Assembly: GCA_026388275.1 (NCBI GenBank)
Contig: JAPLKB010000037.1
Location: 1 to 55,167 of the forward strand
Direction of reading: 5' to 3'
DNA: 55,167 nucleotides
DNA from: Pseudomonadota bacterium
Lineage (GTDB): Bacteria > Desulfobacterota > Syntrophorhabdia > Syntrophorhabdales > Syntrophorhabdaceae
The notes under the pieces are model-generated. The model saw only the letters and a list, made by a program, of their open reading frames with translations. It did no database searches and was not told where the DNA came from. Below are positions 3,127 to 47,032 of this stretch, piece after piece. Position 1 is the stretch's first letter. Every line of letters starts with the position of its first letter. Made by a program: the position numbers and the translations under genes.

Positions 3127-4007
3127 TTTTTTGTGTAATTATTGCAGAAAATACCGATGCTGACGCATACAAGCCCCAGGATCAAGCCTGTTGTTAATTT
3201 TTCTTTCAAAATAATCGCACCGAAAAGAACGCCGAAAACAGGTGCGAGAAATGTAAAAACGGAAAGTTTGGCCACAGGATATGTGTGAATCAGCATAAAC
3301 CAGACAAGATAAGATGCGAAGGCGACTATGACGGACTGATATGCAACGGATGCCAATACATAAACATTCACATTAAAAATCCATTTGTCCTCAATAAAGT
3401 ATGCGCATGCAAACATTATCGGGATTGAAAATATAAACTGGTAGAGAAACGTATTTATAGGATGAACTTTTCCGGCAAGATATTTCTTTATATACAGGGT
3501 TGTTGCACCCCAGAATATGGCTGCTAAAATCTCAAGAGTGTCGCCCAGCAGCATTAATTTATTTGAAGTATGCGGTTTATCCTTGAAAACGAGATAAACA
3601 CCGATAAAGGCAAGAATCAGACCGACAATCTTTAATAAATTGAGTCTTTCTTTTAAGAAAAAGTGTGCTCCAAGGGCAACAATAAATGGAGAAAGGTATA
3701 CAAACACGGCTGCCCTTGCTGCGTCGGTGTAGAGCATCCCGAGATAAAGACAAACAAATTCAAAACCGAAAAGCAGGCCTGTAATAAAACCGTGAAACAG
3801 GAGTATGTCTCTATGAAAAAGCGGTTGCCTGACAACAATACAATAGATGATCCCCAAAAATGACGCAATTAATGAACGCAGAAAGGTTGTAAAAATGGGC
3901 GAGAGCCCTGTATTTGAAAATTTAATTGCCGCATAGTTTATCCCCCATAGTATGGCGAGGATAACAATTGCAACAAAACCTTTCGAGTCTATTTGGTCTT
4001 TTGTCAT
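3123..4007 (-). CDS. EamA-type (DMT superfamily) transporter
   Basis: A 294-residue protein with ten predicted helices arranged as two EamA repeats (residues ~10-140 and ~153-290). The repeat signatures are visible: LSPIFTTFLRSLIASFLG early, ARAAVFVYLSPFIVALGAHFFLKERL closing the first half, and KLSVFTFLAPVFGVLFGAIILKEKL closing the second. Drug/metabolite transporters of this kind export amino acids or other small metabolites at the inner membrane; the substrate is unknown. It is the first gene of a two-gene operon with the flippase-like protein. It is divergent from fprA, with 136 bases between the start codons. Confidence 0.88.
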   Translation of the reverse strand: MTKDQIDSKGFVAIVILAILWGINYAAIKFSNTGLSPIFTTFLRSLIASFLGIIYCIVVRQPLFHRDILLFHGFITGLLFGFEFVCLYLGMLYTDAARAAVFVYLSPFIVALGAHFFLKERLNLLKIVGLILAFIGVYLVFKDKPHTSNKLMLLGDTLEILAAIFWGATTLYIKKYLAGKVHPINTFLYQFIFSIPIMFACAYFIEDKWIFNVNVYVLASVAYQSVIVAFASYLVWFMLIHTYPVAKLSVFTFLAPVFGVLFGAIILKEKLTTGLILGLVCVSIGIFCNNYTKK

Positions 4008-4143: not shown

Positions 4144-5364
4144 ATGAAAACCGTTGAGATTAAGCCAGATATTTATTGGGTAGGGGCAATTGACTGGGGT
4201 ATAAGGGATTTCCATGGATATATAACGCAAAACGGCACAACGTATAACAATTACCTTATCAAAGATGAACAGACAACACTTATTGATACGGTAAAACATG
4301 ATTATTGTTCCGTAACTATTGAAAATATAAGTAAAATAGTTGATCTGTCCCAGGTTGTTAATATAGTGGTAAACCATATAGAACCTGATCATGCAAGCAG
4401 TCTTGATATGATAATGAAGCTTATACCTGATGCAACGGTTTACATAACGGAGCGTGGAAAAAAAGGTATTGAGAGGTATTTTGATACGTCGAAGTGGAGA
4501 TTTAAAATTGTAAAAAGCGGTGATGTTCTTAATACAGGAAAATACACTCTGTTATTTCTGGAAACGCCCATGCTTCACTGGCCTGATTCCATGGTTACCT
4601 ATGTTAAAGAGGCAAAGCTCCTTATATCGCAGGATGCCTTCGGGCAGCATATAGCAACTGCGTCCAGATTTGATGATGAATTTGTTGAGTGCAATTCCCA
4701 ATTTGAACTTGATGATGCAATAGCCGATTATTATTCCAATATCCTCATGCCCTTCGGGCAGTTAATAAAGACAAAAATAGGCGATATACTGAAACTCAAT
4801 CTTGATATTGATATGATTGCGCCTGACCATGGCATAATATGGAGGAAAGACCCTGGAAAGATTATTCAGAAATATCTTGACATGGCCGACGGTAAAGCAG
4901 ATTTAAGGGTGGCTGTTATATATGATACCATGTGGCACAGCACAGAGCATATGATGGCCCCGATAGTTGACGGCATTAAAGATGAAGGAGTTGACTGCAA
5001 GGTAATAAAGCTGAGAGAATCCCCGATGAGTGTAGCAGTAAAAGAACTCTGGAAAGCCAGAGGATGCTTAATAGGCGTTCCCACGATTAATAATGTTATG
5101 TTTCCTTCAGTGGCAGGGCTTTTGTATCATCTTGGCGGATTAAAACCGAGAAACAGGATTATGGCCGCATTCGGGAGTTATGGATGGGGCGGCGGAGCAG
5201 TAAAAGAAGCCTATGAGATGTTCAAGCGGATTGGCGTTGAGGTGATGGAGCCCGGAATTCAGATACAATACAGACCATCTTCAGAGGATGAAAAGAAGTG
5301 TTACGAATTTGGAAAGGAATTTGCCGGAAAGGTAAAGGAATACCACAAGAAGTTTGAAGAGTAA
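4144..5364 (+). CDS. fprA: FprA-family A-type flavoprotein (flavodiiron protein)
   Basis: A 406-residue cytosolic enzyme that reduces O2 to water (or NO to N2O) to protect anaerobic metabolism. The metallo-beta-lactamase-like half (1-250) carries the diiron ligands: H78-x-E80-x-D82-H83, H145, D164 and H229. The flavodoxin-like half (~254-400) holds FMN, with the PTINNVMFPSVAGLLYHL and AFGSYGWGGGA loops. Length is normal for the class A two-domain form. A strong AAAGGAGG site sits before the ATG. It is followed 74 bases later by rubrerythrin, a pairing common in anaerobes, so the two probably act together in oxygen/peroxide detoxification, with electrons from a rubredoxin or reductase not found in this window. 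Confidence 0.95.
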   Translation: MKTVEIKPDIYWVGAIDWGIRDFHGYITQNGTTYNNYLIKDEQTTLIDTVKHDYCSVTIENISKIVDLSQVVNIVVNHIEPDHASSLDMIMKLIPDATVYITERGKKGIERYFDTSKWRFKIVKSGDVLNTGKYTLLFLETPMLHWPDSMVTYVKEAKLLISQDAFGQHIATASRFDDEFVECNSQFELDDAIADYYSNILMPFGQLIKTKIGDILKLNLDIDMIAPDHGIIWRKDPGKIIQKYLDMADGKADLRVAVIYDTMWHSTEHMMAPIVDGIKDEGVDCKVIKLRESPMSVAVKELWKARGCLIGVPTINNVMFPSVAGLLYHLGGLKPRNRIMAAFGSYGWGGGAVKEAYEMFKRIGVEVMEPGIQIQYRPSSEDEKKCYEFGKEFAGKVKEYHKKFEE

Positions 5365-5438
5365 GATAATTATATGTATTACGGAAATAACAGTAAGCTG
5401 CTTGCAGTGTACAAATAAAATATATTGGAGGTATAAAC

Positions 5439-5933
5439 ATGTCTAAGACAGAAAATAATTTAAAAGATGCTTTTGCAGGAGAATCTCAGGCGAACAGGAA
5501 ATACCTTGCTTTTGCAAAAAAGGCCGAAGAAGAAGGCTATAAACAGGCTGCGAGATTATTTAGAGCAGCAGCAGAAGCCGAAACAGTACATGCGCATAAT
5601 CATTTGAGAGAGCTTAAAGGCATTAAAAGCACAAAAGAGAATCTTGCAGAGGCCATCAGCGGTGAAACACATGAGTTTACGGAAATGTACCCGGTCATGA
5701 TTGAAGAAGCCAAATCAGAAGGCAACAATGGAGCTGTGAGAAGTTTTCATATCGCCAACGAGGTTGAAAAGATCCATGCTGCACTATATAAAAAAGCCCT
5801 TGAAACACTGGGCAGCAATGTAGAGACGGAATATTACATATGCAAGGTGTGCGGTTGTACGGTTGAGGGCGAGGCGCCTGATGTATGCCCGGTTTGCGGC
5901 GCCAAAAAGGTAGCTTTTTATAAGGTAGATTAA
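5439..5933 (+). CDS. rbr: Rubrerythrin
   Basis: A 164-residue cytosolic peroxidase that reduces H2O2 to water. An N-terminal four-helix diiron domain carries the ligand motifs GES (E15), EAETVHAHNH (E48, H51), GETHE (from 75) and EVEKIH (108-113). A C-terminal rubredoxin-like domain has CxxC pairs at 135/138 and 150/153 holding one FeS4 centre. Length is on the short side but both domains are complete. GGAGG precedes the ATG. Placed just after fprA and before an Fe-S flavoprotein, it forms part of an oxidative-stress block, though the 74-base gap leaves it open whether it is co-transcribed. Confidence 0.95.
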   Translation: MSKTENNLKDAFAGESQANRKYLAFAKKAEEEGYKQAARLFRAAAEAETVHAHNHLRELKGIKSTKENLAEAISGETHEFTEMYPVMIEEAKSEGNNGAVRSFHIANEVEKIHAALYKKALETLGSNVETEYYICKVCGCTVEGEAPDVCPVCGAKKVAFYKVD

Positions 5934-6015
5934 TTTTTAAATACCTGTATGCGTGAAAATTGATAAAGCGCTATATATAAAACGTTTCATTTATTGTGCT
6001 GAAAAATAGTGAGGA

Positions 6016-6600
6016 ATGTTGAGAATAGTGGCCTTTCACGGAAGTCCAAGGGTTGACGGCAACTCCGATATTTTACTTCAGGAGGCTTTGAAGCCGATAT
6101 ACAAAGAAGGCCATGAAGTGAAGCTTTTCAAACTCAATCTCATGAATATAAAGCCTTGTCAGAACTGCGGCGGCTGTGATGAGACAGGTCTTTGTGTGAT
6201 ACATGATGAGATGAGTGAAATTTATGATGCAGTCAGGGCAGCAGACAGGGTTATACTTTCATCCCCGATTTTCTTCTTTGCTCTTTCTGCACAGACAAAA
6301 ATAATGATTGACAGATTTCAGTGTTTCTGGTGCGAAAAATATCTTCTCGGCAAACCGATTCCGGAAGGCGAGCATGGAAGAAAGGGTCTTCTGCTGCTTG
6401 TCGGAGGGATGACAAAGGACATAGGCGTTCAATGCGGGGAGGCGGCTGCCAAAGCATTCTTCAGGACAATCAGCGTTCCGAAGCATGAAACGCTGAGCTA
6501 TTTGGGCATTGATTATAAGGGTGCGATCCTGCATCACCCCACAGCATTGAACGATGTCAGTCGTGCTGGGGAAAGGCTAATAAAACAGGAAGAGGAGTAA
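6016..6600 (+). CDS. Flavodoxin-fold NAD(P)H-dependent reductase with a cysteine cluster (iron-sulfur flavoprotein type)
   Basis: A 194-residue protein of the FMN reductase/Isf family. The FMN phosphate loop is HGSPRVDGNSD (8-18). C48, C51, C54 and C60 form a CxxCxxCx5C cluster typical of the 4Fe-4S site of archaeal-type iron-sulfur flavoproteins, and the SSPIFFFALSAQTK segment is the flavin-binding loop. Such proteins pass electrons between ferredoxin-like donors and O2/H2O2 or other acceptors. The start is ambiguous: the GAGG site lies only one base before the ATG at 6016 and fits better with the TTG at 6019. IlvE begins 7 bases after its stop, so the two are probably co-transcribed. Confidence 0.85.
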   Translation: MLRIVAFHGSPRVDGNSDILLQEALKPIYKEGHEVKLFKLNLMNIKPCQNCGGCDETGLCVIHDEMSEIYDAVRAADRVILSSPIFFFALSAQTKIMIDRFQCFWCEKYLLGKPIPEGEHGRKGLLLLVGGMTKDIGVQCGEAAAKAFFRTISVPKHETLSYLGIDYKGAILHHPTALNDVSRAGERLIKQEEE

Positions 6601-6607
6601 TGATAAA

Positions 6608-7678
6608 ATGAGAATTACAAAAACTTTAAAGAGCAGAAAACATGAGGTCAATTTTGATAACTTAGGATTCGGCAAACATTTTTCCGACCACATGTTCAGT
6701 TGTGATTACAAAAACGGCAAATGGGATATTCCGCAAATAGTTCCTTACGGCAGCATCAGCATTTCGCCGTCAATATGTTCCCTCCATTACGGACAGATTG
6801 TTTTTGAAGGTCTAAAGGCATTCTATGCAGGTGATAGGATCAATATATTCCGTCCTGAAAAATACCATGAACGATTCAACAGATCTTGCCTCAGGCTTTG
6901 TATACCACCCGTTGAATACGATTTGTTTATACGGGCCATAGAAGGACTTATTATACTGGACGGGCACTGGGTTCCTCAAAGCAAGGAGACTGCTTTGTAT
7001 ATCAGACCCTTCATTTTTGCCACTGATGATTTTCTTGGAGTAAAAGTCTCGGAAACGTACAGCTTTTTAATCATCACATCGCCGGTTGGTGCATATTACA
7101 AGGAAGGGATTAATCCGGTAAAGCTTATTACTTCCGGTGAATATACCAGAGCTGCACAGGGCGGCCTCGGGGAAGCAAAGACTCCTGCCAATTATGCTGC
7201 CAGCTTGCTGCCTGCGCAGATAGCTCAGGATAAAGGGTTCACGCAGGTGTTATGGCTTGATGGTGTTGAGAACAGGTTTATTGAAGAAGTGGGCACCATG
7301 AATATCTTTTTTCTGATCGACAACAAACTGGTAACACCTTCTCTTGAAGGAACAATTCTGTCCGGGGTTACAAGAGACTCGGTGATAACTCTTGCAAAAG
7401 AATGGGGTATTACAGTTGAAGAACGTCGTGTATCGATAGATGAATTGATTTCTTCATCAAAAGACGGTTCGTTGCAGGAGGTGTTCGGCACTGGTACTGC
7501 AGCCGTAATTTCACCGGTAGGCGAGGTTAAACATGGAGAAGAAACTATTATTGTTAATAACAGGAAGATAGGTGAGCTGTCACAAAAACTTTACGATGAG
7601 ATAACAGGAATACAGTATGGAGAAAAAGAGGATAAATTTAACTGGTGTCTTTCATTCTCTGCCCCTCCAAATTTATAG
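6608..7678 (+). CDS. ilvE: Branched-chain amino acid aminotransferase
   Basis: A 356-residue class IV PLP aminotransferase, the full length of the long (type II) IlvE form, catalysing the last step of Leu, Ile and Val synthesis with glutamate. The Schiff-base lysine is K191 in GEAKTPANYAASL. Other family landmarks are YGQIVFEGLKAF (61-72), RPEKYHERFNRSCLRL, FIEEVGTMNIFF (the conserved Glu that binds PLP N1) and GTILSGVTRDSV followed by FGTGTAAVISPV. It follows the flavoprotein with a 7-base gap and is 47 bases before the FeoAB gene, so a loose operon is possible though no functional link is obvious. Confidence 0.93.
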   Translation: MRITKTLKSRKHEVNFDNLGFGKHFSDHMFSCDYKNGKWDIPQIVPYGSISISPSICSLHYGQIVFEGLKAFYAGDRINIFRPEKYHERFNRSCLRLCIPPVEYDLFIRAIEGLIILDGHWVPQSKETALYIRPFIFATDDFLGVKVSETYSFLIITSPVGAYYKEGINPVKLITSGEYTRAAQGGLGEAKTPANYAASLLPAQIAQDKGFTQVLWLDGVENRFIEEVGTMNIFFLIDNKLVTPSLEGTILSGVTRDSVITLAKEWGITVEERRVSIDELISSSKDGSLQEVFGTGTAAVISPVGEVKHGEETIIVNNRKIGELSQKLYDEITGIQYGEKEDKFNWCLSFSAPPNL

Positions 7679-7725
7679 ACAGATTTACAGATTGTATGTG
7701 CAAACGAAAGGCCGGTAAATGAATA

Positions 7726-9972
7726 TTGAATGATGACCTGCTGTCCATTACATCACTCGAGGAAGGCGAAGAGGGCATAGTCTATTCACTTACCGGTGGC
7801 AAGGGTCTTGTAAGCAGGTTTGCCGGAATGGGTATTGTCCCTGGTACAAGAATCAAAATCCTCAGGAACACCGGCAGTTTGATTATTGTACTTGCCTCGG
7901 ATACAAGGATTGCACTCGGCAAAGGGCAGGCCGATAAAATACTGGTGGCAAAATTATATGGCCAGGATATTGATGCAGAACCGGCCAAAGGAAGGAAATC
8001 TCTTCTTGTGGCGCTTGCCGGCCAGCCTAATGTAGGAAAGTCTACTGTTTTTAATATTCTCACCGGTTTGTCGCAGCATGTAGGAAATTGGCCTGGTAAA
8101 ACGGTAGAAAAGTTTGAAGGAGTCCATGAAACTGAAGATTTTGACATAAGAATCGTCGATCTTCCCGGTACTTATAGCCTCAGTGCTTTATCGGAAGAGG
8201 AGAGGGTTACCAGGGATTTTATTATACATGAACATCCGGATGTCATTGTTCTTATTGCAAATGCGTCTGCATTAGACAGGAGTCTCTATCTCCTCTCTGA
8301 GATTCTTATCCTCGGTCCGCCTGTTGTAGTTGCAGTGAATATGATTGATGTGGCAGAAGAGCAGGGTATCCGAATAGACACGGAAATACTGCAGAAGTCT
8401 CTCCGTATACCCGTTATACAAATGATTGCCAAGAAGAACCGTGGTATTAAGGAGCTCGTCTCTACAATAATCAAGCTTACAAAAGGGGAGTTAACATATA
8501 ACCCGAGAATACCCGACATTTCTGAAGACCATCGGACTATCTTTCATCAAATTAATGAACTTGTAGGTGAACATGCTTCCCCGCCGCATCCTGATGTATG
8601 GATTGCAACAAAATTAATGGAAGGCGACCCTGAAGCATTAGAAGAAATGAAGGAACTTCTGCCTGCGGATACATGGAATAAGATAGAGCTTCTCCTCCTT
8701 AAGCATGAAGATGCCTTGCGTGCTGTTGTTGGAGGAAGGTATGACTGGATTGAGGAGATAACACGTGCAGCTGTTTCGAGATATAAAATAGGACAGATGC
8801 TGATAACAGACCGTATAGACCATGCCCTTACACGTCCTGTTATCGGGATACCTGTTTTGCTTTGTATACTTGCTGTAATTTTTACACTTACCTTTAAGGT
8901 CGGATATCCTCTCCAGAAATGGCTTGAATTATTCATAGGTGCTTTCGGCAGGCTTTTTGATTCATCATTGCATAATGCACCCTTCTGGATCAGGGGTTTG
9001 CTTATAGACGGTATTATAGGGGGGGCAGGATCTGTCCTCACTTTTATTCCACTTCTTGTTATATTTTTTATTTCCATGGCTTTCCTTGAAGATATCGGTT
9101 ATATGGCACGCGCAGCCTTTGTTATGGACAGATTTATGCATATCATAGGGTTGCATGGGAAAAGTTTTTTGCCTATGTGTCTTGGTTTTGGGTGTAATGT
9201 TCCCTCTATTATGGGAGCGAGGATTATTGAATCAAAAAGAGCGAGAATGCTTACCATATTCCTCACCCCTTTTGTGCCGTGCACAGCAAGACTTGCGACT
9301 ATGACATTCATAGCCGCCGCTGTTTTCGGTGAAAAGGCCCTTGTTGTTTCCTGGTCGCTCATTGCTCTGAATCTCCTTGCCCTTGGTTTTACCGGGATGA
9401 TTATGAGCAGGTTCTTTTTAAAAGATGTTCCCATACCTTTTATTATGGAGCTTCCCCTTTACCATAAACCTGATATCAGAACAATAGCGATGGCTGTTTG
9501 GAGTAGAACCCTGTCTTTTATAAAAAAGGCAGGTACGGTGATACTTGGTTTCTCAGTTCTGATATGGATAATATCCAACTTCCCCGGCAGAAACATAGAA
9601 AACAGCATACTTGGCTTGTTAGGGCGTTTCATTGAACCTGTCGGAATTCCCCTTGGGCTTAATTGGAAGATGATTGTTGCGCTTCTTTCAAGTATAGTTG
9701 CAAAAGAAAATGCTATTGCAACCCTTGCTGTCCTGTATGGTGTGGGCGAACATGGTCTTATGGATGTTCTGCCGAATGTGATAAATCATGCTTCGTCCCT
9801 TTCTTTTCTTGTGACTCTTATGTTGTTTATACCTTGTGCTCCTACTTTTGTTGTAATGAAAAGGGAAATGGGCAGTTGGAAGTGGTTTGCCACTTCATTT
9901 GTATCTATGCTTCTTATCTCTTATTGCGGGGGGATAGCAGCTTACAGGATAGCATTGTTGCTGGGAATATAA
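7726..9972 (+). CDS. feoB: FeoA-FeoB fusion ferrous iron transporter
   Basis: A 748-residue inner-membrane Fe(II) transporter with FeoA fused in front. Residues 1-80 are an SH3-like FeoA domain (GKGLVSRFAGMGIVPGTRIK). The GTPase has G1 at 99-107 (GQPNVGKST), the switch ThrVal region, G3 DLPGTY and G4 NMID. A helical GDI domain follows, then about eight membrane helices with the FeoB cysteine motifs CLGFGCNVPS and PFVPCTARLA and the late IPCAPTFVVMKREMGSWKW. The only in-frame start is a TTG at 7726; a nearby ATG is out of frame. It converges with amrS with a one-base gap, leaving no room for a separate terminator. Separate FeoA and FeoB are the usual state; the fusion is known in some anaerobes. 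Confidence 0.94.
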   Translation: MNDDLLSITSLEEGEEGIVYSLTGGKGLVSRFAGMGIVPGTRIKILRNTGSLIIVLASDTRIALGKGQADKILVAKLYGQDIDAEPAKGRKSLLVALAGQPNVGKSTVFNILTGLSQHVGNWPGKTVEKFEGVHETEDFDIRIVDLPGTYSLSALSEEERVTRDFIIHEHPDVIVLIANASALDRSLYLLSEILILGPPVVVAVNMIDVAEEQGIRIDTEILQKSLRIPVIQMIAKKNRGIKELVSTIIKLTKGELTYNPRIPDISEDHRTIFHQINELVGEHASPPHPDVWIATKLMEGDPEALEEMKELLPADTWNKIELLLLKHEDALRAVVGGRYDWIEEITRAAVSRYKIGQMLITDRIDHALTRPVIGIPVLLCILAVIFTLTFKVGYPLQKWLELFIGAFGRLFDSSLHNAPFWIRGLLIDGIIGGAGSVLTFIPLLVIFFISMAFLEDIGYMARAAFVMDRFMHIIGLHGKSFLPMCLGFGCNVPSIMGARIIESKRARMLTIFLTPFVPCTARLATMTFIAAAVFGEKALVVSWSLIALNLLALGFTGMIMSRFFLKDVPIPFIMELPLYHKPDIRTIAMAVWSRTLSFIKKAGTVILGFSVLIWIISNFPGRNIENSILGLLGRFIEPVGIPLGLNWKMIVALLSSIVAKENAIATLAVLYGVGEHGLMDVLPNVINHASSLSFLVTLMLFIPCAPTFVVMKREMGSWKWFATSFVSMLLISYCGGIAAYRIALLLGI

Positions 9973-39820: not shown

Positions 39821-39874
39821 CGGTTTTGCTCCTTTCCCTTTTATGCCGCCCAATAAAAAGCTGAACAAGAAGCA

Positions 39875-40398
39875 GGCTTTATTGCCGATTGGCACCAACG
39901 ATTCGATTCGTTGGAACTTTTTTGCCTCTATCTGCTTCTCTATGTTTTTGTTTTATTATATCTTCTATTCAGTTTTTTGTCTTTATTCTTATCTAAACTT
40001 TCAATCAATTGATTCCCCGAAGCTCTGCTTCGGGGTGACCAAATTCCCTCGCCCCTTGAGGGAGAGGGCAGGGTGAGGGGGGTGATAATCATGTTCCCCA
40101 TTCCTCTGATACCACGCAGCTCTGCTGCGGGGAGGTTCATTAAGAAGAAAACACACCATTTTCAAGAACCTCTTTTCTTTGATGTCCTGTACTCCAAAAA
40201 AGACATTTATCAAACGGTTTCCAGGATGGTATTCACAGTGAATACCAATAATACTTAATTGTTCAAACCAAAGCCTGTCTTGGCTTTACGGAGATTTAAC
40301 TTTTTGCTCTCACTGTGAGAGCAAATGCTACAGCACAGTGTCTGTAATCGCCGAAAATGATCCTAAAACGAATTTCTTTCCTATAATATGGCTCCAAC
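39875..40398 (-). repeat. Structured non-coding element, copy 1 (split by a REP-like repeat)
   Basis: Shares ~384 bp with 42099-42482. Removing the 141-bp REP-like insert (40001-40141) leaves 383 bp, almost the same length. Hairpins: CCAACGA/TCGTTGG at the left; TGGTATTCA/TGAATACCA with a CAG loop (40227-40247); AAAGCC/GGCTTT (40270-40287); TTTGCTCTCA/TGAGAGCAAA with a CTG loop (40303-40325); TACAG/CTGTA (40329-40346). Seven base pairs change in a compensatory way relative to copy 2. No conserved protein frame. The strand is given as the cassette direction. Confidence 0.85.
40001..40141. repeat. REP-like dispersed repeat, copy 3 (inserted in the structured element)
   Basis: Full 141-bp copy from TCAATCAATTGATTCC to GGGGAGGTTCATTA. 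The structured element continues on both sides of it, while the second copy at 42099-42482 is uninterrupted, so this REP-like unit inserted after the element had duplicated. Confidence 0.88.
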
Positions 40399-40455
40399 AC
40401 AGCCATCACCGGGAGGCCGGTTTTATGGCCGATTCGCTGGAACGTCTTGTTAAGC
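40392..40455 (-). other. attC-like recombination site 3
   Basis: Minus strand: GCTTAAC (perfect RYYYAAC, 40455-40449), a long spacer, arm GCCAT, AAA bulge, ACCGG, loop, CCGGT, arm ATGGC, then GTTGGAG as R'. GTTCCAGC nearer to the stem is a second candidate R''. The stop codon of BrnA falls in the stem, so the last ~18 residues of BrnA are encoded by attC-like sequence. Confidence 0.5.
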
Positions 40456-40672
40456 GTTTTGTTGAACGAGTCAGTTCCAGAAGAGACCGCAGGGCACTAT
40501 TTACTGAAGCAGAATCATGGAATGCCTTCGCTATATCAGGATCAAGAATAATCACGTTGGAACCTTCTTCGATTAATCTATGGTAGTATTTTCCGCGGAC
40601 AGCTTTCGAATAGTCGAAATCATATTCTGGACGTAACTCGTCGATGTCTTTTTTCTTGTTTTTATTTTTCAT
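40406..40672 (-). CDS. brnA: BrnA-like antitoxin (CopG-type)
   Basis: 88 residues. The ATG at 40672 lies inside the end of brnT (11-base overlap) with GAGAGG upstream. The conserved core is ELRPEYDFDYSKAVRGKYY followed by NVIILDPDIAKAFHDSASVN and a short helix, which is the BrnA signature: a ribbon-helix-helix that neutralises BrnT and autoregulates the operon. The residues after ~68 (LTRSTKRLTRRSSESAIKPA) do not look like family sequence and coincide with attC-like DNA. Confidence 0.85.
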   Translation of the reverse strand: MKNKNKKKDIDELRPEYDFDYSKAVRGKYYHRLIEEGSNVIILDPDIAKAFHDSASVNSALRSLLELTRSTKRLTRRSSESAIKPASR

Positions 40673-40931
40673 GTTTTTTCCTCTCTTGCGCAGTGGCAAG
40701 CCTTGAGCTTATAATACGTGTACTTTTTTTCCTCTCCGAGTATGCAACAACAAGCAGCTTATTTTGTGAAGAGAATCCAATGGTTATAAAGCGCTGTTCA
40801 TTTACAGAATGATCAGGATCATTGAAGGTTGCAGATAAAGGATCGTAAAACACTGTAACGGCTTCGTCGAAAGCAATCCCATGTTTTTTATAGTTTCTTC
40901 CGGCTTTTTCCGGGTCCCATTCAAATTGCAT
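40662..40931 (-). CDS. brnT: BrnT-family ribonuclease toxin
   Basis: 89 residues, a RelE-fold toxin that cleaves mRNA. It opens with the family hallmark FEWDPEKAGRNYKKHGIAFDEA (residues 3-24) and ends with RIISSRLATAQERKKHE, including the Arg and Ser/Arg positions of the BrnT active site. BrnT precedes BrnA, the usual order. Upstream on the minus strand, 38 bases before the ATG, is GTTAAGC, the R' box of attC-like site 4, so the toxin-antitoxin pair occupies one cassette. Confidence 0.9.
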   Translation of the reverse strand: MQFEWDPEKAGRNYKKHGIAFDEAVTVFYDPLSATFNDPDHSVNEQRFITIGFSSQNKLLVVAYSERKKSTRIISSRLATAQERKKHEK

Positions 40932-40969
40932 TGTGAATTATCTTATCTCATATTTATTATATTTTCCAT

Positions 40970-41025
40970 GCTTAACATGGTGATCAGCCAGAGCCGGATT
41001 CTTCGGCGATTGGCTGGATCAATTC
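40970..41025 (-). other. attC-like recombination site 4, disrupted by an IS110 remnant
   Basis: Minus strand: GAATT spacer, arm GATCCAGCCA, inner GCCG/CGGC hairpin, arm TGGCTGATC, 5-base spacer ACCAT, perfect R' box GTTAAGC (40976-40970). The first arm has one unpaired extra base, as attC L'' arms do. The R'' box is missing: where it should be (beyond 41025) the IS110 sequence begins. BrnT starts 38 bases after GTTAAGC. Confidence 0.68.
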
Positions 41026-41692
41026 GATACTATTCAAGGCCTCCTCGAGACATGGTAAAATTGGTCTTACGAGGAACCAAATCTTATCAACACAGGAGGA
41101 AGCCTTATGAACTTTTACAAAGGTCAACACAAATTTTACTGTGGTATCGATTTACATGCAAGAAAAATGTATCTCTGCATTCTTGATGAAAAAGGAGAGG
41201 TAAAGCTTCACCGGAACATGGATACGGACAGAGAAGCCTTTCTCAAAGCTATTGAACCATACAGAGAAGATGTGGTTGTTGCTGTTAAATGTATGTTTGC
41301 CTGGTACTGGATAGCCGATCTCTGTCAGAAAGAAGGTATATCCTTCGTATTAGGTCATGCCCTTTATATGAAAGCAATCCATGGAGGCAAGGCAAAGAAC
41401 GACAAGATTGATTCACAGAAAATAGCTGTTCTTTTAAGGGGAGGCATGATCCCTCAGTCGTATGTTTACCCGGAGAAGATGAGAGCAACAAGAGACCTTA
41501 TGAGGAGAAGGAATCATCTGATGAGAAAAAGAGCTGAACTTTTAGCTCATATTCAGAATACCAACAGTCAGTACAGCCTCGATGAGACCTTCGGCTGTAT
41601 TGCAGTTCCCAGTAGAAGAGGAAACATTATCGATAAATTCGATCATCCCGCTGTTCAAAAAAGTATGGAAGCTGATCTTGAAGTTATACCCG
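41021..41692 (+). mobile_element. IS110-family insertion sequence remnant (5' half)
   Basis: The left end abuts the arm of an attC-like site and the leader contains a small CCTCG/CGAGG hairpin near 41040-41075 (the place where IS110 elements encode a bridge RNA, inferred). The right boundary is where the transposase reading leaves family sequence, ~41686-41692, fused to the interior of a truncated parE. The C-terminal half and right end are lost. Insertion into attC sites is known for the IS1111 subgroup. Confidence 0.7.
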
Positions 41693-41724
41693 TGCTTTGT
41701 CGTAGATGTCTTTTAAAACCTTAG
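41107..41724 (+). pseudogene. Truncated IS110 transposase
   Basis: 205 codons; intact members have ~340. The N-terminal DEDD domain is present: GIDLHARKMYLCIL (first Asp) and KNDKIDSQKIA (Asp pair). The position that should be the second acidic residue reads VAVKCMFAWYW, where family members have VAVEC, so the catalytic Glu is Lys. The C-terminal Transposase_20 domain with the nucleophilic Ser is gone; after ADLEVIPV the frame continues ~10 codons into antisense parE sequence. AGGAGGAAGCC precedes the ATG. Inactive. Confidence 0.85.
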
Positions 41725-41812
41725 CGGCAGCGCTTGGGCTATCTGCCGCTATATAGTCGTGAATATCGTGGAGCCAGATTTCAGCCTCAGATGTCCACCT
41801 TATTTCTGCCAT
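41684..41812 (-). pseudogene. Truncated ParE/RelE-family toxin
   Basis: 42 codons, about half of a normal ParE. MAEIRWTSEAEIWLHDIHDY and IAADSPSAAAKVLKDIY match the N-terminal half of ParE toxins (helix pair before the beta-sheet). The ATG overlaps the antitoxin gene by 13 bases, the usual toxin-antitoxin arrangement. The frame ends at TAA exactly at the junction with the IS110 remnant; the catalytic beta-strands are missing. Too short for the automatic ORF set. Confidence 0.78.
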
Positions 41813-41985
41813 GATGCAATCCGGTGTCTCATCGTTTCGTCTGATATGACACGTTCATTCTTTGCGTCATTTAAGCCCTTCTCAATCATTCGCTCAAATG
41901 CAAGTTCACGAATGATTTCCTCATACGATGCATCATCAGGCTGAGCTTCTATTATCTCTTTCATCTTTTGATTAGCCATGGCCAT
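41800..41985 (-). CDS. Antitoxin of the truncated ParE toxin
   Basis: 61 residues, nearly all helical: MANQKMKEIIEAQPDDASYE followed by a helix with ELAFERMIEKGLNDAKNERV and HRIASWQK. This is the addiction-module type that pairs with ParE-like toxins encoded immediately downstream. GGAGG precedes the ATG. Intact, but its toxin is cut short, so it is an orphaned antitoxin. Confidence 0.75.
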   Translation of the reverse strand: MAMANQKMKEIIEAQPDDASYEEIIRELAFERMIEKGLNDAKNERVISDETMRHRIASWQK

Positions 41986-42098
41986 ATCAACTTACCTCCT
42001 TCATCGAATGTAACATAGAGATTATTATAACAAAAAAAGCCAAGTATTTGAATTATCTTGTTTCCATCCGGGTATAACACGAAGCTGAGCCTGAGTCT

Positions 42099-42482
42099 GC
42101 TTTATTGCCGATTGGCTCCAACGATTCCATTGTTGAAACTTTTTTGCCTCTATCTGCTTCTCCATGTTTTTGTTTTATTGTAGCTTCTATTCTGTTTTTT
42201 TGTCTTTATTCTTATCTCAACTTTCAGTACTATGAAAACCCAACATTTCTATGAATTTTCATTTTTGCCTTACTGTACTCCATAAAAGACATTTTTTAAA
42301 AGGATCCTATACTTTCGTTCACAGTGAACGAAAAAATTACTTAATTCTCCAAACTAAAGCCTGTATTGGCTTTAAAGAGATTTTACTTTTTGCTACAACA
42401 GTTGTAGCAAATGCTACAGACATAATGTCTGTAATCGCACGAAATGATATAAAATCGATATTTTCGATCATCTTGTTCCAAC
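42099..42482 (-). repeat. Structured non-coding element, copy 2 (uninterrupted)
   Basis: 384 bp. Hairpins matching copy 1: TTTCGTTCA/TGAACGAAA with CAG loop (42313-42333), AAAGCC/GGCTTT (42356-42373), TTTGCTACAA/TTGTAGCAAA with CAG loop (42389-42411) and TACAGACA/TGTCTGTA (42415-42433). Against copy 1, stem 1 shows four compensated pairs and stem 3 shows three. Both copies end at an attC-like core, so this may be a non-coding cassette. Upstream of it, 41986-42098 shows no gene. Confidence 0.86.
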
Positions 42483-42535
42483 AAAAAGCTCACCGGCCTG
42501 CGCTTGAGCAGGTCCGGTGCAGCAACGGGTTAGGC
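42476..42535 (-). other. attC recombination site 5 (best preserved)
   Basis: Minus strand: perfect R'' box GCCTAAC (42535-42529), spacer CCGTT, arm GCTGCACCGGACCTGC, 6-base loop, arm GCAGGCCGGTGAGC, spacer TTTTT, R' GTTGGAA (one mismatch). The arms pair over 14 bp with two single extrahelical bases, both in the first arm, the polarity expected of a true attC. It starts 3 bases after the stop codon of the HEPN gene. Confidence 0.8.
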
Positions 42536-42538
42536 ACA

Positions 42539-43090
42539 TTATATATCCTGCTCTCCATCATCTTTCTGGTTCTCTTGATGGGTAATTGGTTTTTCTTTAA
42601 ACGGTAATAGGGTCTTGATGTCAGCTAATGCCGAACTGACCATGCTTGCTCTGAGTTCCCAGTCTTCGAACTCTGTGTCCGTAATGGGTCTACCTTCCCC
42701 CCATTGAACAAAGCCGATTCCTTCTTCAATGGGCCTTCCTAATGCTTCATCGGAGACATCAACAGTAGAATGCGCTAGTTTGTTCCTAACTTCTTGGATT
42801 TTCTGTAGGTCCATCAAGAATTGCTTGTTTTCTTCCCAGTATCTGGGGTAGTCATTCTTGACAATATCGATGAGTATTTCCTTCTTATTGTTGAGAGACA
42901 ATCTTTCGGCAACTTTGTTAAAGAACAAAGCTCTTTTATTCTCATCCTGCGTGCGGAAGTATTTCGTGAGAATCACGGCAATGTCTCGCTCAATGACCGC
43001 AACCGAATTTAGAAATCGGCCTCTAAGATATCTTGCTCTCTCGTGAATCTTCTGAGCGGCTGCCACTTTTTTTCTATATTCTTGGTTCAT
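42539..43090 (-). CDS. HEPN-motif cassette protein of unknown function
   Basis: 183 residues, all-helical. EVRNKLAHS (~106-114) contains RxxxxH (RNKLAH), the catalytic signature of HEPN ribonucleases; the preceding helix KKEILIDIVKNDYPRYWEEN is also HEPN-like. Many such proteins act as toxins or defence effectors, but no partner antitoxin is next to it, so function is inference. The gene fits a textbook integron cassette: GTTAAGC 12 bases before the ATG and GCCTAAC 3 bases after the stop, both on the minus strand. No Shine-Dalgarno sequence, common for first-in-cassette genes. Confidence 0.8.
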   Translation of the reverse strand: MNQEYRKKVAAAQKIHERARYLRGRFLNSVAVIERDIAVILTKYFRTQDENKRALFFNKVAERLSLNNKKEILIDIVKNDYPRYWEENKQFLMDLQKIQEVRNKLAHSTVDVSDEALGRPIEEGIGFVQWGEGRPITDTEFEDWELRASMVSSALADIKTLLPFKEKPITHQENQKDDGEQDI

Positions 43091-46791: not shown

Positions 46792-46894
46792 TACCAAATT
46801 CCCTCGCCCCTTGAGGGAGATGGCAGGGTGAGGGGGGAATAATCATGTTCCCCATTCCCCTGATACCTCGCAGCTCTGCTGCGGGGAGGTTCAT
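46792..46894. repeat. REP-like dispersed repeat, copy 4 (left end missing)
   Basis: Starts at ACCAAATTCCCTCGCC, without the TCAATCAATTGATT arm, and runs to GGGGAGGTTCATT. It lies between the selenoprotein gene and a decayed acetyltransferase-like fragment. Confidence 0.85.
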
Positions 46895-47032
46895 TTAAAT
46901 GCCGCGATCTTTGAGACCGTAATTGAGCATTGTCTTCTGTGAAAATATGTGATTTGAAACTGCAAAGGCATATACACCGTAAAGTTCATGCCCCTTTTGT
47001 GTTTCGAACAAAAGCCCCGGCATCTTGCCCAT
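46895..47032 (-). pseudogene. Fragment resembling the C-terminal end of a GNAT-like acetyltransferase
   Basis: 45 codons: MPGLLFETQKGHELYGVYAF then AVSNHIFSQKTMLNYGLKDR. The HxFSQKTxxxxGLKxxGI pattern is like the acyl-CoA-binding end of GNAT domains. No complete gene; it stops right at the REP-like repeat, which may have caused the truncation. Matched by eye only. Confidence 0.35.

What the first reader, a model, noticed from the sequence alone, without database searches (positions are those of the whole stretch)
39875..42482. Duplicated ~384-bp non-coding element with seven covarying base pairs
Two copies (39875-40398 after removing an insert, and 42099-42482) have lengths of 383 and 384 bp and share a string of hairpins with 3-base loops. 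In the first stem TGGTATTCA/TGAATACCA becomes TTTCGTTCA/TGAACGAAA (four compensated pairs); in the third TTTGCTCTCA/TGAGAGCAAA becomes TTTGCTACAA/TTGTAGCAAA (three). Stems are kept while sequence changes, which means selection for structure. It does not match an RNA family I know, and both copies end at attC-like cores.
Basis: seen in the sequence. Interest (0 to 1): 0.88.

Follow-up and report, generated by a model that had tools for sequence, protein, structure and literature searches.

The report
Cassettes carrying self-matched ParB-type sites
The "covarying stems" are probably not a folded RNA but DNA palindromes that look like docking sites for a very large family of ParB-like DNA-binding proteins; nearly every gene of that family examined carries such a site inside the codons of its own DNA-reading domain, and site and reading residues change together.

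Summary
Two ~384-bp copies exist, their stems change in compensated pairs, and ~44 copies in four genomes confirm strong covariation (216 double-change cells; 67 expected by shuffling). The interpretation as a structured RNA is not supported: no Rfam match, and G·U mismatches equal A·C mismatches (35 each). Each copy is a gene-less integron cassette; five attC sites lie in 2.7 kb of the window. Its core is homologous to the HTH-coding region of an orphan ParB-like gene family with 38-44 matches per genome in the four genomes that carry the element. In 71 of 73 such genes a perfect palindrome (69 with arms of 6 bp or more, 3-bp centre) sits at one fixed codon position of the HTH. Its half-site predicts recognition-helix residues 36-53 bp away, outside the palindrome: C in the half-site goes with Arg, A with Asn (68 of 72). 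On a tree built without the HTH, 11 of 12 independent switches agree and none opposes (p=0.001). The window palindromes use the same half-site words. Best reading: parS-like sites for a self-diversifying ParB family whose genes carry their own cognate site next to the specificity helix as an exchangeable module. Binding itself is untested, and what the cassettes do is inferred.

The parts
39848..39916 (-). attC site 1 (end of the copy-1 cassette, read on the minus strand)
   Evidence: CM R2 built from attC-like sites of other loci, 26.4 bits, E 9e-4
39917..40390 (-). gene-less cassette, copy 1 (interrupted by a repeat-derived insert at about 40004-40141)
   Evidence: CM R1 core 40222-40359, 142.6 bits
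40227..40247 (.). palindrome hp1, half-site class TTCA; inner 7 bp identical to parB-gene palindromes L218/L225
40303..40325 (.). palindrome hp3, half-site class CTCA; inner 7 bp identical to parB-gene palindrome L135
40329..40346 (.). palindrome hp4 of copy 1, spoiled by a one-base deletion
   Evidence: alignment A1/A3
40266..40302 (-). relic of parB HTH-coding sequence between hp1 and hp3 (minus-strand sense ...ISVKPRQALV)
   Evidence: nhmmer of the element core against parB loci, E down to 8e-10; translation
39955..39983 (-). sigma-70-like promoter AAGACA-N17-TATAAT facing attC 1 (number of promoter-like sites in the region is not above chance)
40391..40455 (-). attC site 2 (3' end of the BrnT toxin-antitoxin cassette)
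   Evidence: CM R2 48.5 bits, E 1e-8
40406..40931 (-). toxin-antitoxin cassette: BrnT toxin (40662-40931) and a downstream small ORF (40406-40699)
   Evidence: Pfam PF04365, E 7.7e-26, for the BrnT ORF; the partner ORF has no Pfam match
40970..41032 (-). attC site 3
   Evidence: CM R2 37.7 bits, E 2.6e-6
41107..41724 (+). IS110-family transposase remnant inside the neighbouring cassette
   Evidence: Pfam PF01548, E 9e-17
42071..42138 (-). attC site 4 (end of the copy-2 cassette)
   Evidence: CM R2 35.8 bits, E 7e-6
42139..42474 (-). gene-less cassette, copy 2
   Evidence: CM R1 core 42308-42446, 157.8 bits
42177..42206 (-). promoter-like AAGACA-N18-TACAAT facing attC 4 (not above chance)
42313..42333 (.). 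palindrome hp1 of copy 2, half-site class TTCA
42352..42388 (-). relic of parB HTH-coding sequence (minus-strand sense ...ISLKPIQALV)
42389..42411 (.). palindrome hp3 of copy 2, half-site class ACAA; inner 7 bp identical to parB-gene palindromes L133/L226
42415..42433 (.). palindrome hp4 of copy 2, half-site class GACA; inner 7 bp identical to parB-gene palindrome L217
42475..42535 (-). attC site 5 (core GCCTAAC...GTTGGAAC on the minus strand)
   Evidence: CM R2 42.6 bits, E 2e-7
42539..43090 (-). 183-aa ORF of the next cassette, no Pfam match

Best explanation
The paired 'stems' are double-stranded palindromic binding sites (parS/NBS-like, with an odd 3-bp centre) for members of an expanded orphan ParB-like family in the same genome. 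Each parB gene carries its own cognate site inside the HTH codons, right beside the codons of the recognition helix, so site and specificity form one exchangeable module of about 30 codons. The window element is a gene-less integron cassette whose core derives from such a module and carries three sites of different half-site classes at fixed spacing. SHOWN by computation: cassette structure, homology to the parB HTH-coding region, palindrome at a fixed codon position in 71 of 73 genes, site-residue covariation, shared site words. INFERRED: that the proteins bind these sites. MORE SPECULATIVE: that binding on the cassette nucleates ParB-type clamps and so regulates, insulates or anchors the cassette array, or the promoter-like sequence near its attC.
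For: (1) Element core profile hits 50 parB loci at the HTH, E down to 8e-10, on the antisense strand; 3 hits in 594 kb of control. (2) 71 of 73 parB-like genes have a perfect palindrome (69 with arms of 6 or more) at one codon position; the canonical ParB genes of five relatives have none. (3) Half-site base N3 against the residue equivalent to ParB N178: A-Asn 35, C-Arg 33, four exceptions of 72 plus one G-Ser; MI 0.935 against 0.054 shuffled, 0/2000; N1 and N2 covary with 174. These residues lie 36-53 bp from the centre, outside the palindrome; by alignment they correspond to the ParB recognition helix, in which K171, S172, R173 and N178 contact parS and R173 is a specificity residue (PMC7383237). 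(4) The few synonymous contrasts mostly agree: Ala GCC-Arg but GCA-Asn; Ser TCC-Arg twice (one TCC-Asn in a gene with a stop) and TCA-Asn. (5) On a tree without the HTH, N3 changes 22 times, residue 178 21 times; 12 independent pairs: 11 agree, 0 oppose, p=0.001; half-site triplet changes 47 times in 69 genes. (6) Module exchange: 92% identical elsewhere but 40% in the module; 59% elsewhere but 97% in the module. (7) 34 of 41 element palindromes in G000 share a 6-bp arm with a parB-gene palindrome; 24.7 by column shuffling, 0/2000. (8) Strong element copies and parB expansion occur in the same four genomes. (9) G·U = A·C.
Against: No binding data. The tree used the quick method with only 14 of 66 inner branches well supported. 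Residues 173/174/178 covary with codon -1 as well as with the DNA, so protein-internal coupling could explain part of (3); synonymous contrasts are few and one is an exception in a gene with a stop. Two parB genes (L237, L251) lack the palindrome, and L147/L227 have only 6-bp arms. hp4 is spoiled in window copy 1. Elements and parB modules are homologous, so shared words partly reflect descent. The role of the cassette is not tested.
Confidence: 0.8

Rival explanations
1. Structured non-coding RNA carried by integron cassettes, with stems conserved as RNA helices.
For: Strong covariation and conserved linkers; cassette-borne small RNAs are discussed in the integron literature; promoter-like sequences occur on both strands.
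Against: G·U 35 = A·C 35; the palindromes also occur in parB coding sequence, tied to DNA-contacting residues; no Rfam match.
Confidence: 0.08
2. Decaying parB fragments without function; palindromes are kept symmetrical by a mutational process such as template switching within short inverted repeats.
For: The element core is a parB HTH relic with stops and frameshifts in several copies; variable arm columns differ more (pairwise identity 0.44-0.53) than linkers (0.65) yet stay paired.
Against: Does not explain covariation with recognition-helix residues outside the palindrome, nor the shared half-site vocabulary at hp1 and hp4, which lie outside the homologous palindrome.
Confidence: 0.1
3. 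Single-stranded DNA hairpins serving integron recombination or second-strand synthesis of cassettes.
For: The elements sit in attC-bounded cassettes; 3-nt loops suit DNA hairpins; absence of G·U excess fits DNA.
Against: The same palindromes lie in parB genes across the genome, mostly away from attC sites, and their sequence covaries with protein residues.
Confidence: 0.04
4. A mobile palindromic repeat (like Rickettsia palindromic elements) that inserted in frame into parB genes and into cassettes.
For: Dispersed, palindromic, partly in frame in protein genes.
Against: The two parB-like proteins scanned match the HTH_ParB domain across the palindrome-encoded stretch, so it looks like native HTH sequence and not an insertion; arms vary with specificity residues and not as one repeat consensus.
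Confidence: 0.03

Closest known systems
ParB-parS (chromosome and plasmid partition) and Noc-NBS (nucleoid occlusion)
   Same: ParB_N and HTH_ParB domains, conserved GERR and ENLQR boxes, palindromic sites, specificity set by recognition-helix residues (PMC7383237); the TTCA-class palindrome reads TTCAC-A-GTGAA, close to the parS core TTCAC-GTGAA (parS sequence from memory).
   Different: Dozens of orphan paralogues per genome; odd 3-bp centre; many site specificities; the site overlaps the protein's own HTH codons in nearly every gene and co-diversifies as a module. A parS lying inside B. subtilis spo0J is known to me from memory only; a library search did not return it.
Orphan ParB proteins (PMC12704722)
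   Same: parB outside parAB operons, linked in that survey to mobile elements and diversification.
   Different: No family of about 40 paralogues with in-gene cognate sites is described in the text searched.
Gene-less (promoter) integron cassettes, e.g. Vibrio superintegrons (PMC11014356)
   Same: attC-bounded, no gene, promoter-like sequence facing the next cassette.
   Different: Carries three ParB-type palindromes and a parB HTH relic; one family dispersed over many contigs of the genome.
Type I restriction HsdS specificity subunits (exchangeable target-recognition domains)
   Same: Specificity diversification by exchanging a recognition module within a conserved backbone (analogy only).
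   Different: Here the exchanged module also contains the DNA target itself.

Membership tests
Integron cassette array without integrase (CALIN) | Clustered attC sites (RYYYAAC...GTTRRRY with a conserved stem) | tested here: met
   5 attC in 2.7 kb of the window and none elsewhere in it, 3 in 400 kb of unselected genome; most element loci also carry attC matches. The model was my own, not IntegronFinder's.
Integron cassette array without integrase (CALIN) | No integron integrase next to the array | tested here: met
   Own genome has only a 55-position fragment of TIGR02249 on another contig, C11
ParB/parS partition system | ParB_N and HTH_ParB domains in the protein | tested here: met
   Pfam PF02195 and PF17762 over cut-off in the two paralogues scanned; PDB ParB/Spo0J/Noc hits; NCBIfam parB_part. 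The proteins are encoded elsewhere in the genome, not in the window.
ParB/parS partition system | Palindromic cognate site | tested here: inconclusive
   Palindromes present and covarying with recognition residues; binding not tested
ParB/parS partition system | ParA partner in an operon and role in segregation | not tested
   Two loci listed show no long ORF resembling ParA next to parB; no systematic search
Noc-NBS | Full-length Noc-type protein and NBS-type site (ATTTCCCGGGAAAT, from memory) | tested here: not met
   NCBIfam nucleoid_noc matches only the N-domain, far below cut-off (89.9 of 315 bits); no palindrome listed is of NBS type
Structured RNA family | Match to a curated RNA family | tested here: not met
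   0 at gathering score; only chance-level matches at E up to 10
Structured RNA family | Covariation with wobble pairs on one strand | tested here: not met
   G·U 35, A·C 35 over four helices of 44 copies; no known RNA run as control

The most novel reading that the evidence does not exclude
A self-specifying DNA-binding gene: the cognate site of each ParB-like protein is written inside its own HTH codons, so duplication or gene conversion of about 30 codons hands over a new site together with a matching reader. This has generated tens of ParB-site pairs of differing specificity per genome, and integron cassettes carry multi-specificity site clusters for them.
Probability: 0.6. Interest if true: 0.92.

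Novelty: new variant of a known kind. Interest (0 to 1): 0.85.

Why it matters
If true, this is a natural laboratory of protein-DNA specificity: dozens of paralogous readers whose target is encoded beside the reading helix, giving a recognition code (Arg/Asn at 178 with C or A; residues 173-174 with the next two bases) that can be tested directly and could supply orthogonal ParB-site pairs for DNA labelling. It offers a way for reader and site to change together without passing through a mismatched state. It also warns that strong pairwise covariation in inverted repeats is not by itself evidence of RNA structure.

Tried and rejected
RNA family reading: Rfam at gathering and at E up to 10, rejected on the wobble test. 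Promoter scan: AAGACA-N17/18-TATAAT/TACAAT near both attC ends, but the number of promoter-like sites equals the shuffled number (7 against 6.6), so not used as evidence. A protein-coding reading of the element (minus-strand frame ...DTVSV..TTVVAKSKISVKPIQALV) was checked: open for 23 codons around hp3 in 32 of 43 copies but with stops soon after in most, so taken as a parB relic and not a gene. Viral and plasmid origin: element pattern in no viral contig, no viral contig found to encode a relative, plasmid ParBs only about 30% identical. Element found in 3 of 395 sampled genomes of the phylum and the parB family in 5 of 395, all in one family. Organism not named: the one genome-contig scan gave a single MAG titled Proteobacteria, Lake Pavin sediment.
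Full report
Observation. The duplicated element is real and at the stated coordinates. Three 3-nt-loop palindromes recur in each copy: hp1, hp3 and hp4 (hp4 spoiled in copy 1). A blastn search of the window's genome and a covariance model of the 139-nt core find 16 strong copies in this genome, more in a congener (G001) and in two genomes of a sister genus (G007, G016), and no others in 395 genomes of the phylum sampled. Over 44 copies the pairs hold in 92.9% of cells with 216 double changes (66.8 shuffled); the MAFFT alignment of 14 copies, not fitted to the structure, agrees.

Setting. A model built from attC-like sites of other loci finds exactly five attC sites in the window, at 39848-39916, 40391-40455, 40970-41032, 42071-42138 and 42475-42535, against three in 400 kb of unselected genome. 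Read on the minus strand the array is: 183-aa ORF, element copy 2, a toxin-antitoxin remnant with an IS110 fragment, the BrnT cassette, element copy 1. The element is thus a gene-less cassette in an integrase-less attC cluster; the genome holds only a fragment of an integron integrase. Several element copies elsewhere lack the attC on one side.

Not RNA-like. Across the four helices G·U and A·C are equally frequent, 35 each. A helix selected as RNA on one strand should favour G·U. No matched RNA control was completed. Rfam has no match.

Origin of the core. Palindromes with the same centre (A-C[A/T]G-T) and variable arms occur elsewhere in the genome. Many lie inside ParB-like genes, at the HTH. 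The two scanned proteins match ParB_N and HTH_ParB, and the family matches Spo0J/ParB/Noc structures in the PDB. The family is expanded: 41 matches in G000, 44 in G001, 38 in G007, 38 in G016, 6 in G009, 2 in G010, and it is restricted to one family of the phylum in the sample. A profile of the element core matches 50 parB loci at the HTH-coding region (best E 8e-10), on the strand that makes the window minus strand parB sense in the cases checked; 594 kb of control give three hits.

The site inside the gene. In 71 of 73 parB-like genes a perfect palindrome is centred on the same Thr-Val codon pair; 69 or more have arms of at least 6 bp. The canonical ParBs of five relatives have none there. 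The encoded residues around the pair vary widely (residue -1 is A, S, E, D, L, T, P, F, V or I) while the DNA symmetry is kept.

Writing the half-site as N1 N2 N3 A, N3=A goes with Asn (35 of 36) and N3=C with Arg (33 of 36) at the position that aligns with Caulobacter ParB N178 (alignment; contacts in PMC7383237). N1 and N2 covary with residue 174 (MI 1.30 and 1.06 against about 0.2 shuffled). These codons lie 36-53 bp from the centre, outside the palindrome. Arg with a C:G pair and Asn with an A:T pair match common base-contact preferences (established knowledge). Synonymous contrasts are few: Ala GCC with Arg but GCA with Asn; Ser TCC with Arg twice, and once with Asn in a gene with a stop; TCA with Asn. 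On a tree from which the HTH columns were removed, N3 changes 22 times and residue 178 21 times; of 12 independent pairs 11 go together and none opposes (p = 0.001), and the half-site triplet changes 47 times in 69 genes (quick method, modest support). The ~30-codon module behaves as exchangeable: pairs 82-92% identical elsewhere share 27-40% in it, and a G010/G001 pair 59% identical elsewhere shares 97% in it.

Back to the window. Element palindromes use the parB half-site vocabulary: hp1 mostly TTCA, hp4 GACA, hp3 CCAA, CTCA, GCAA, GAAA or ACAA. In G000, 34 of 41 share a 6-bp arm with a parB-gene palindrome (24.7 by column shuffling, 0 of 2000). Window copy 1 carries the words of L218/L225 (hp1) and L135 (hp3); copy 2 those of L133/L226 (hp3) and L217 (hp4). 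The 'seven covarying pairs' are therefore best read as changes of site class. Variable arm columns differ more between copies (identity 0.44-0.53) than linkers (0.65) yet stay paired.

Mechanism. Most likely the palindromes are cognate sites of orphan ParB-like proteins, each gene carrying its own site as part of an exchangeable specificity module, and the cassettes are clusters of three sites of different class. Binding, CTP-dependent clamp loading and the effect on neighbouring cassettes or on the promoter-like sequence near the attC are inferred.

Novelty. ParB-parS, Noc-NBS and orphan ParBs are known (PMC7383237; PMC12704722). I found no description of a ParB family in which the target site is encoded within the protein's own HTH codons and exchanged with it (open-access library only).

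Noticed in passing
window 40004-40141 and 46793-46895: A GC-rich repeat (CTCGCCCCTTGAGGGAGAGGGCAGGGTGAGGGGG plus short hairpins) interrupts copy 1, has a near-identical copy at 46793-46895, and related copies sit at similar places in other elements (L024, L027, L028).
   Followed up: partly
L142 (G000:C58:60000-75000), about 4500-8500 and 10860: A related ~200-bp composite with two palindrome modules in opposite orientation recurs between small gene modules, at least some of them toxin-antitoxin-like; it looks like a second cassette-like array without obvious attC.
   Followed up: partly
L088 (G001:C83), 3374-3510 and 3728-3865: Two element cores in divergent orientation, 200 bp apart, with different palindromes.
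   Followed up: no
parB loci at G000 contig ends (C65, C26, C69, C58, C60, C20, C34, C42, C10, C49): Many parB-like genes lie at contig ends, as expected of a recently multiplied family that breaks the assembly; no transposase or terminal repeat was seen in the flanks printed.
   Followed up: partly
window 41107-41724: IS110-family transposase N-terminal fragment inserted in a toxin-antitoxin cassette between the two element copies.
   Followed up: no
G000:C11:69095-69259: Only remnant of an integron integrase in the genome; attC sites lie nearby at C11:70591 and C11:72750.
   Followed up: no
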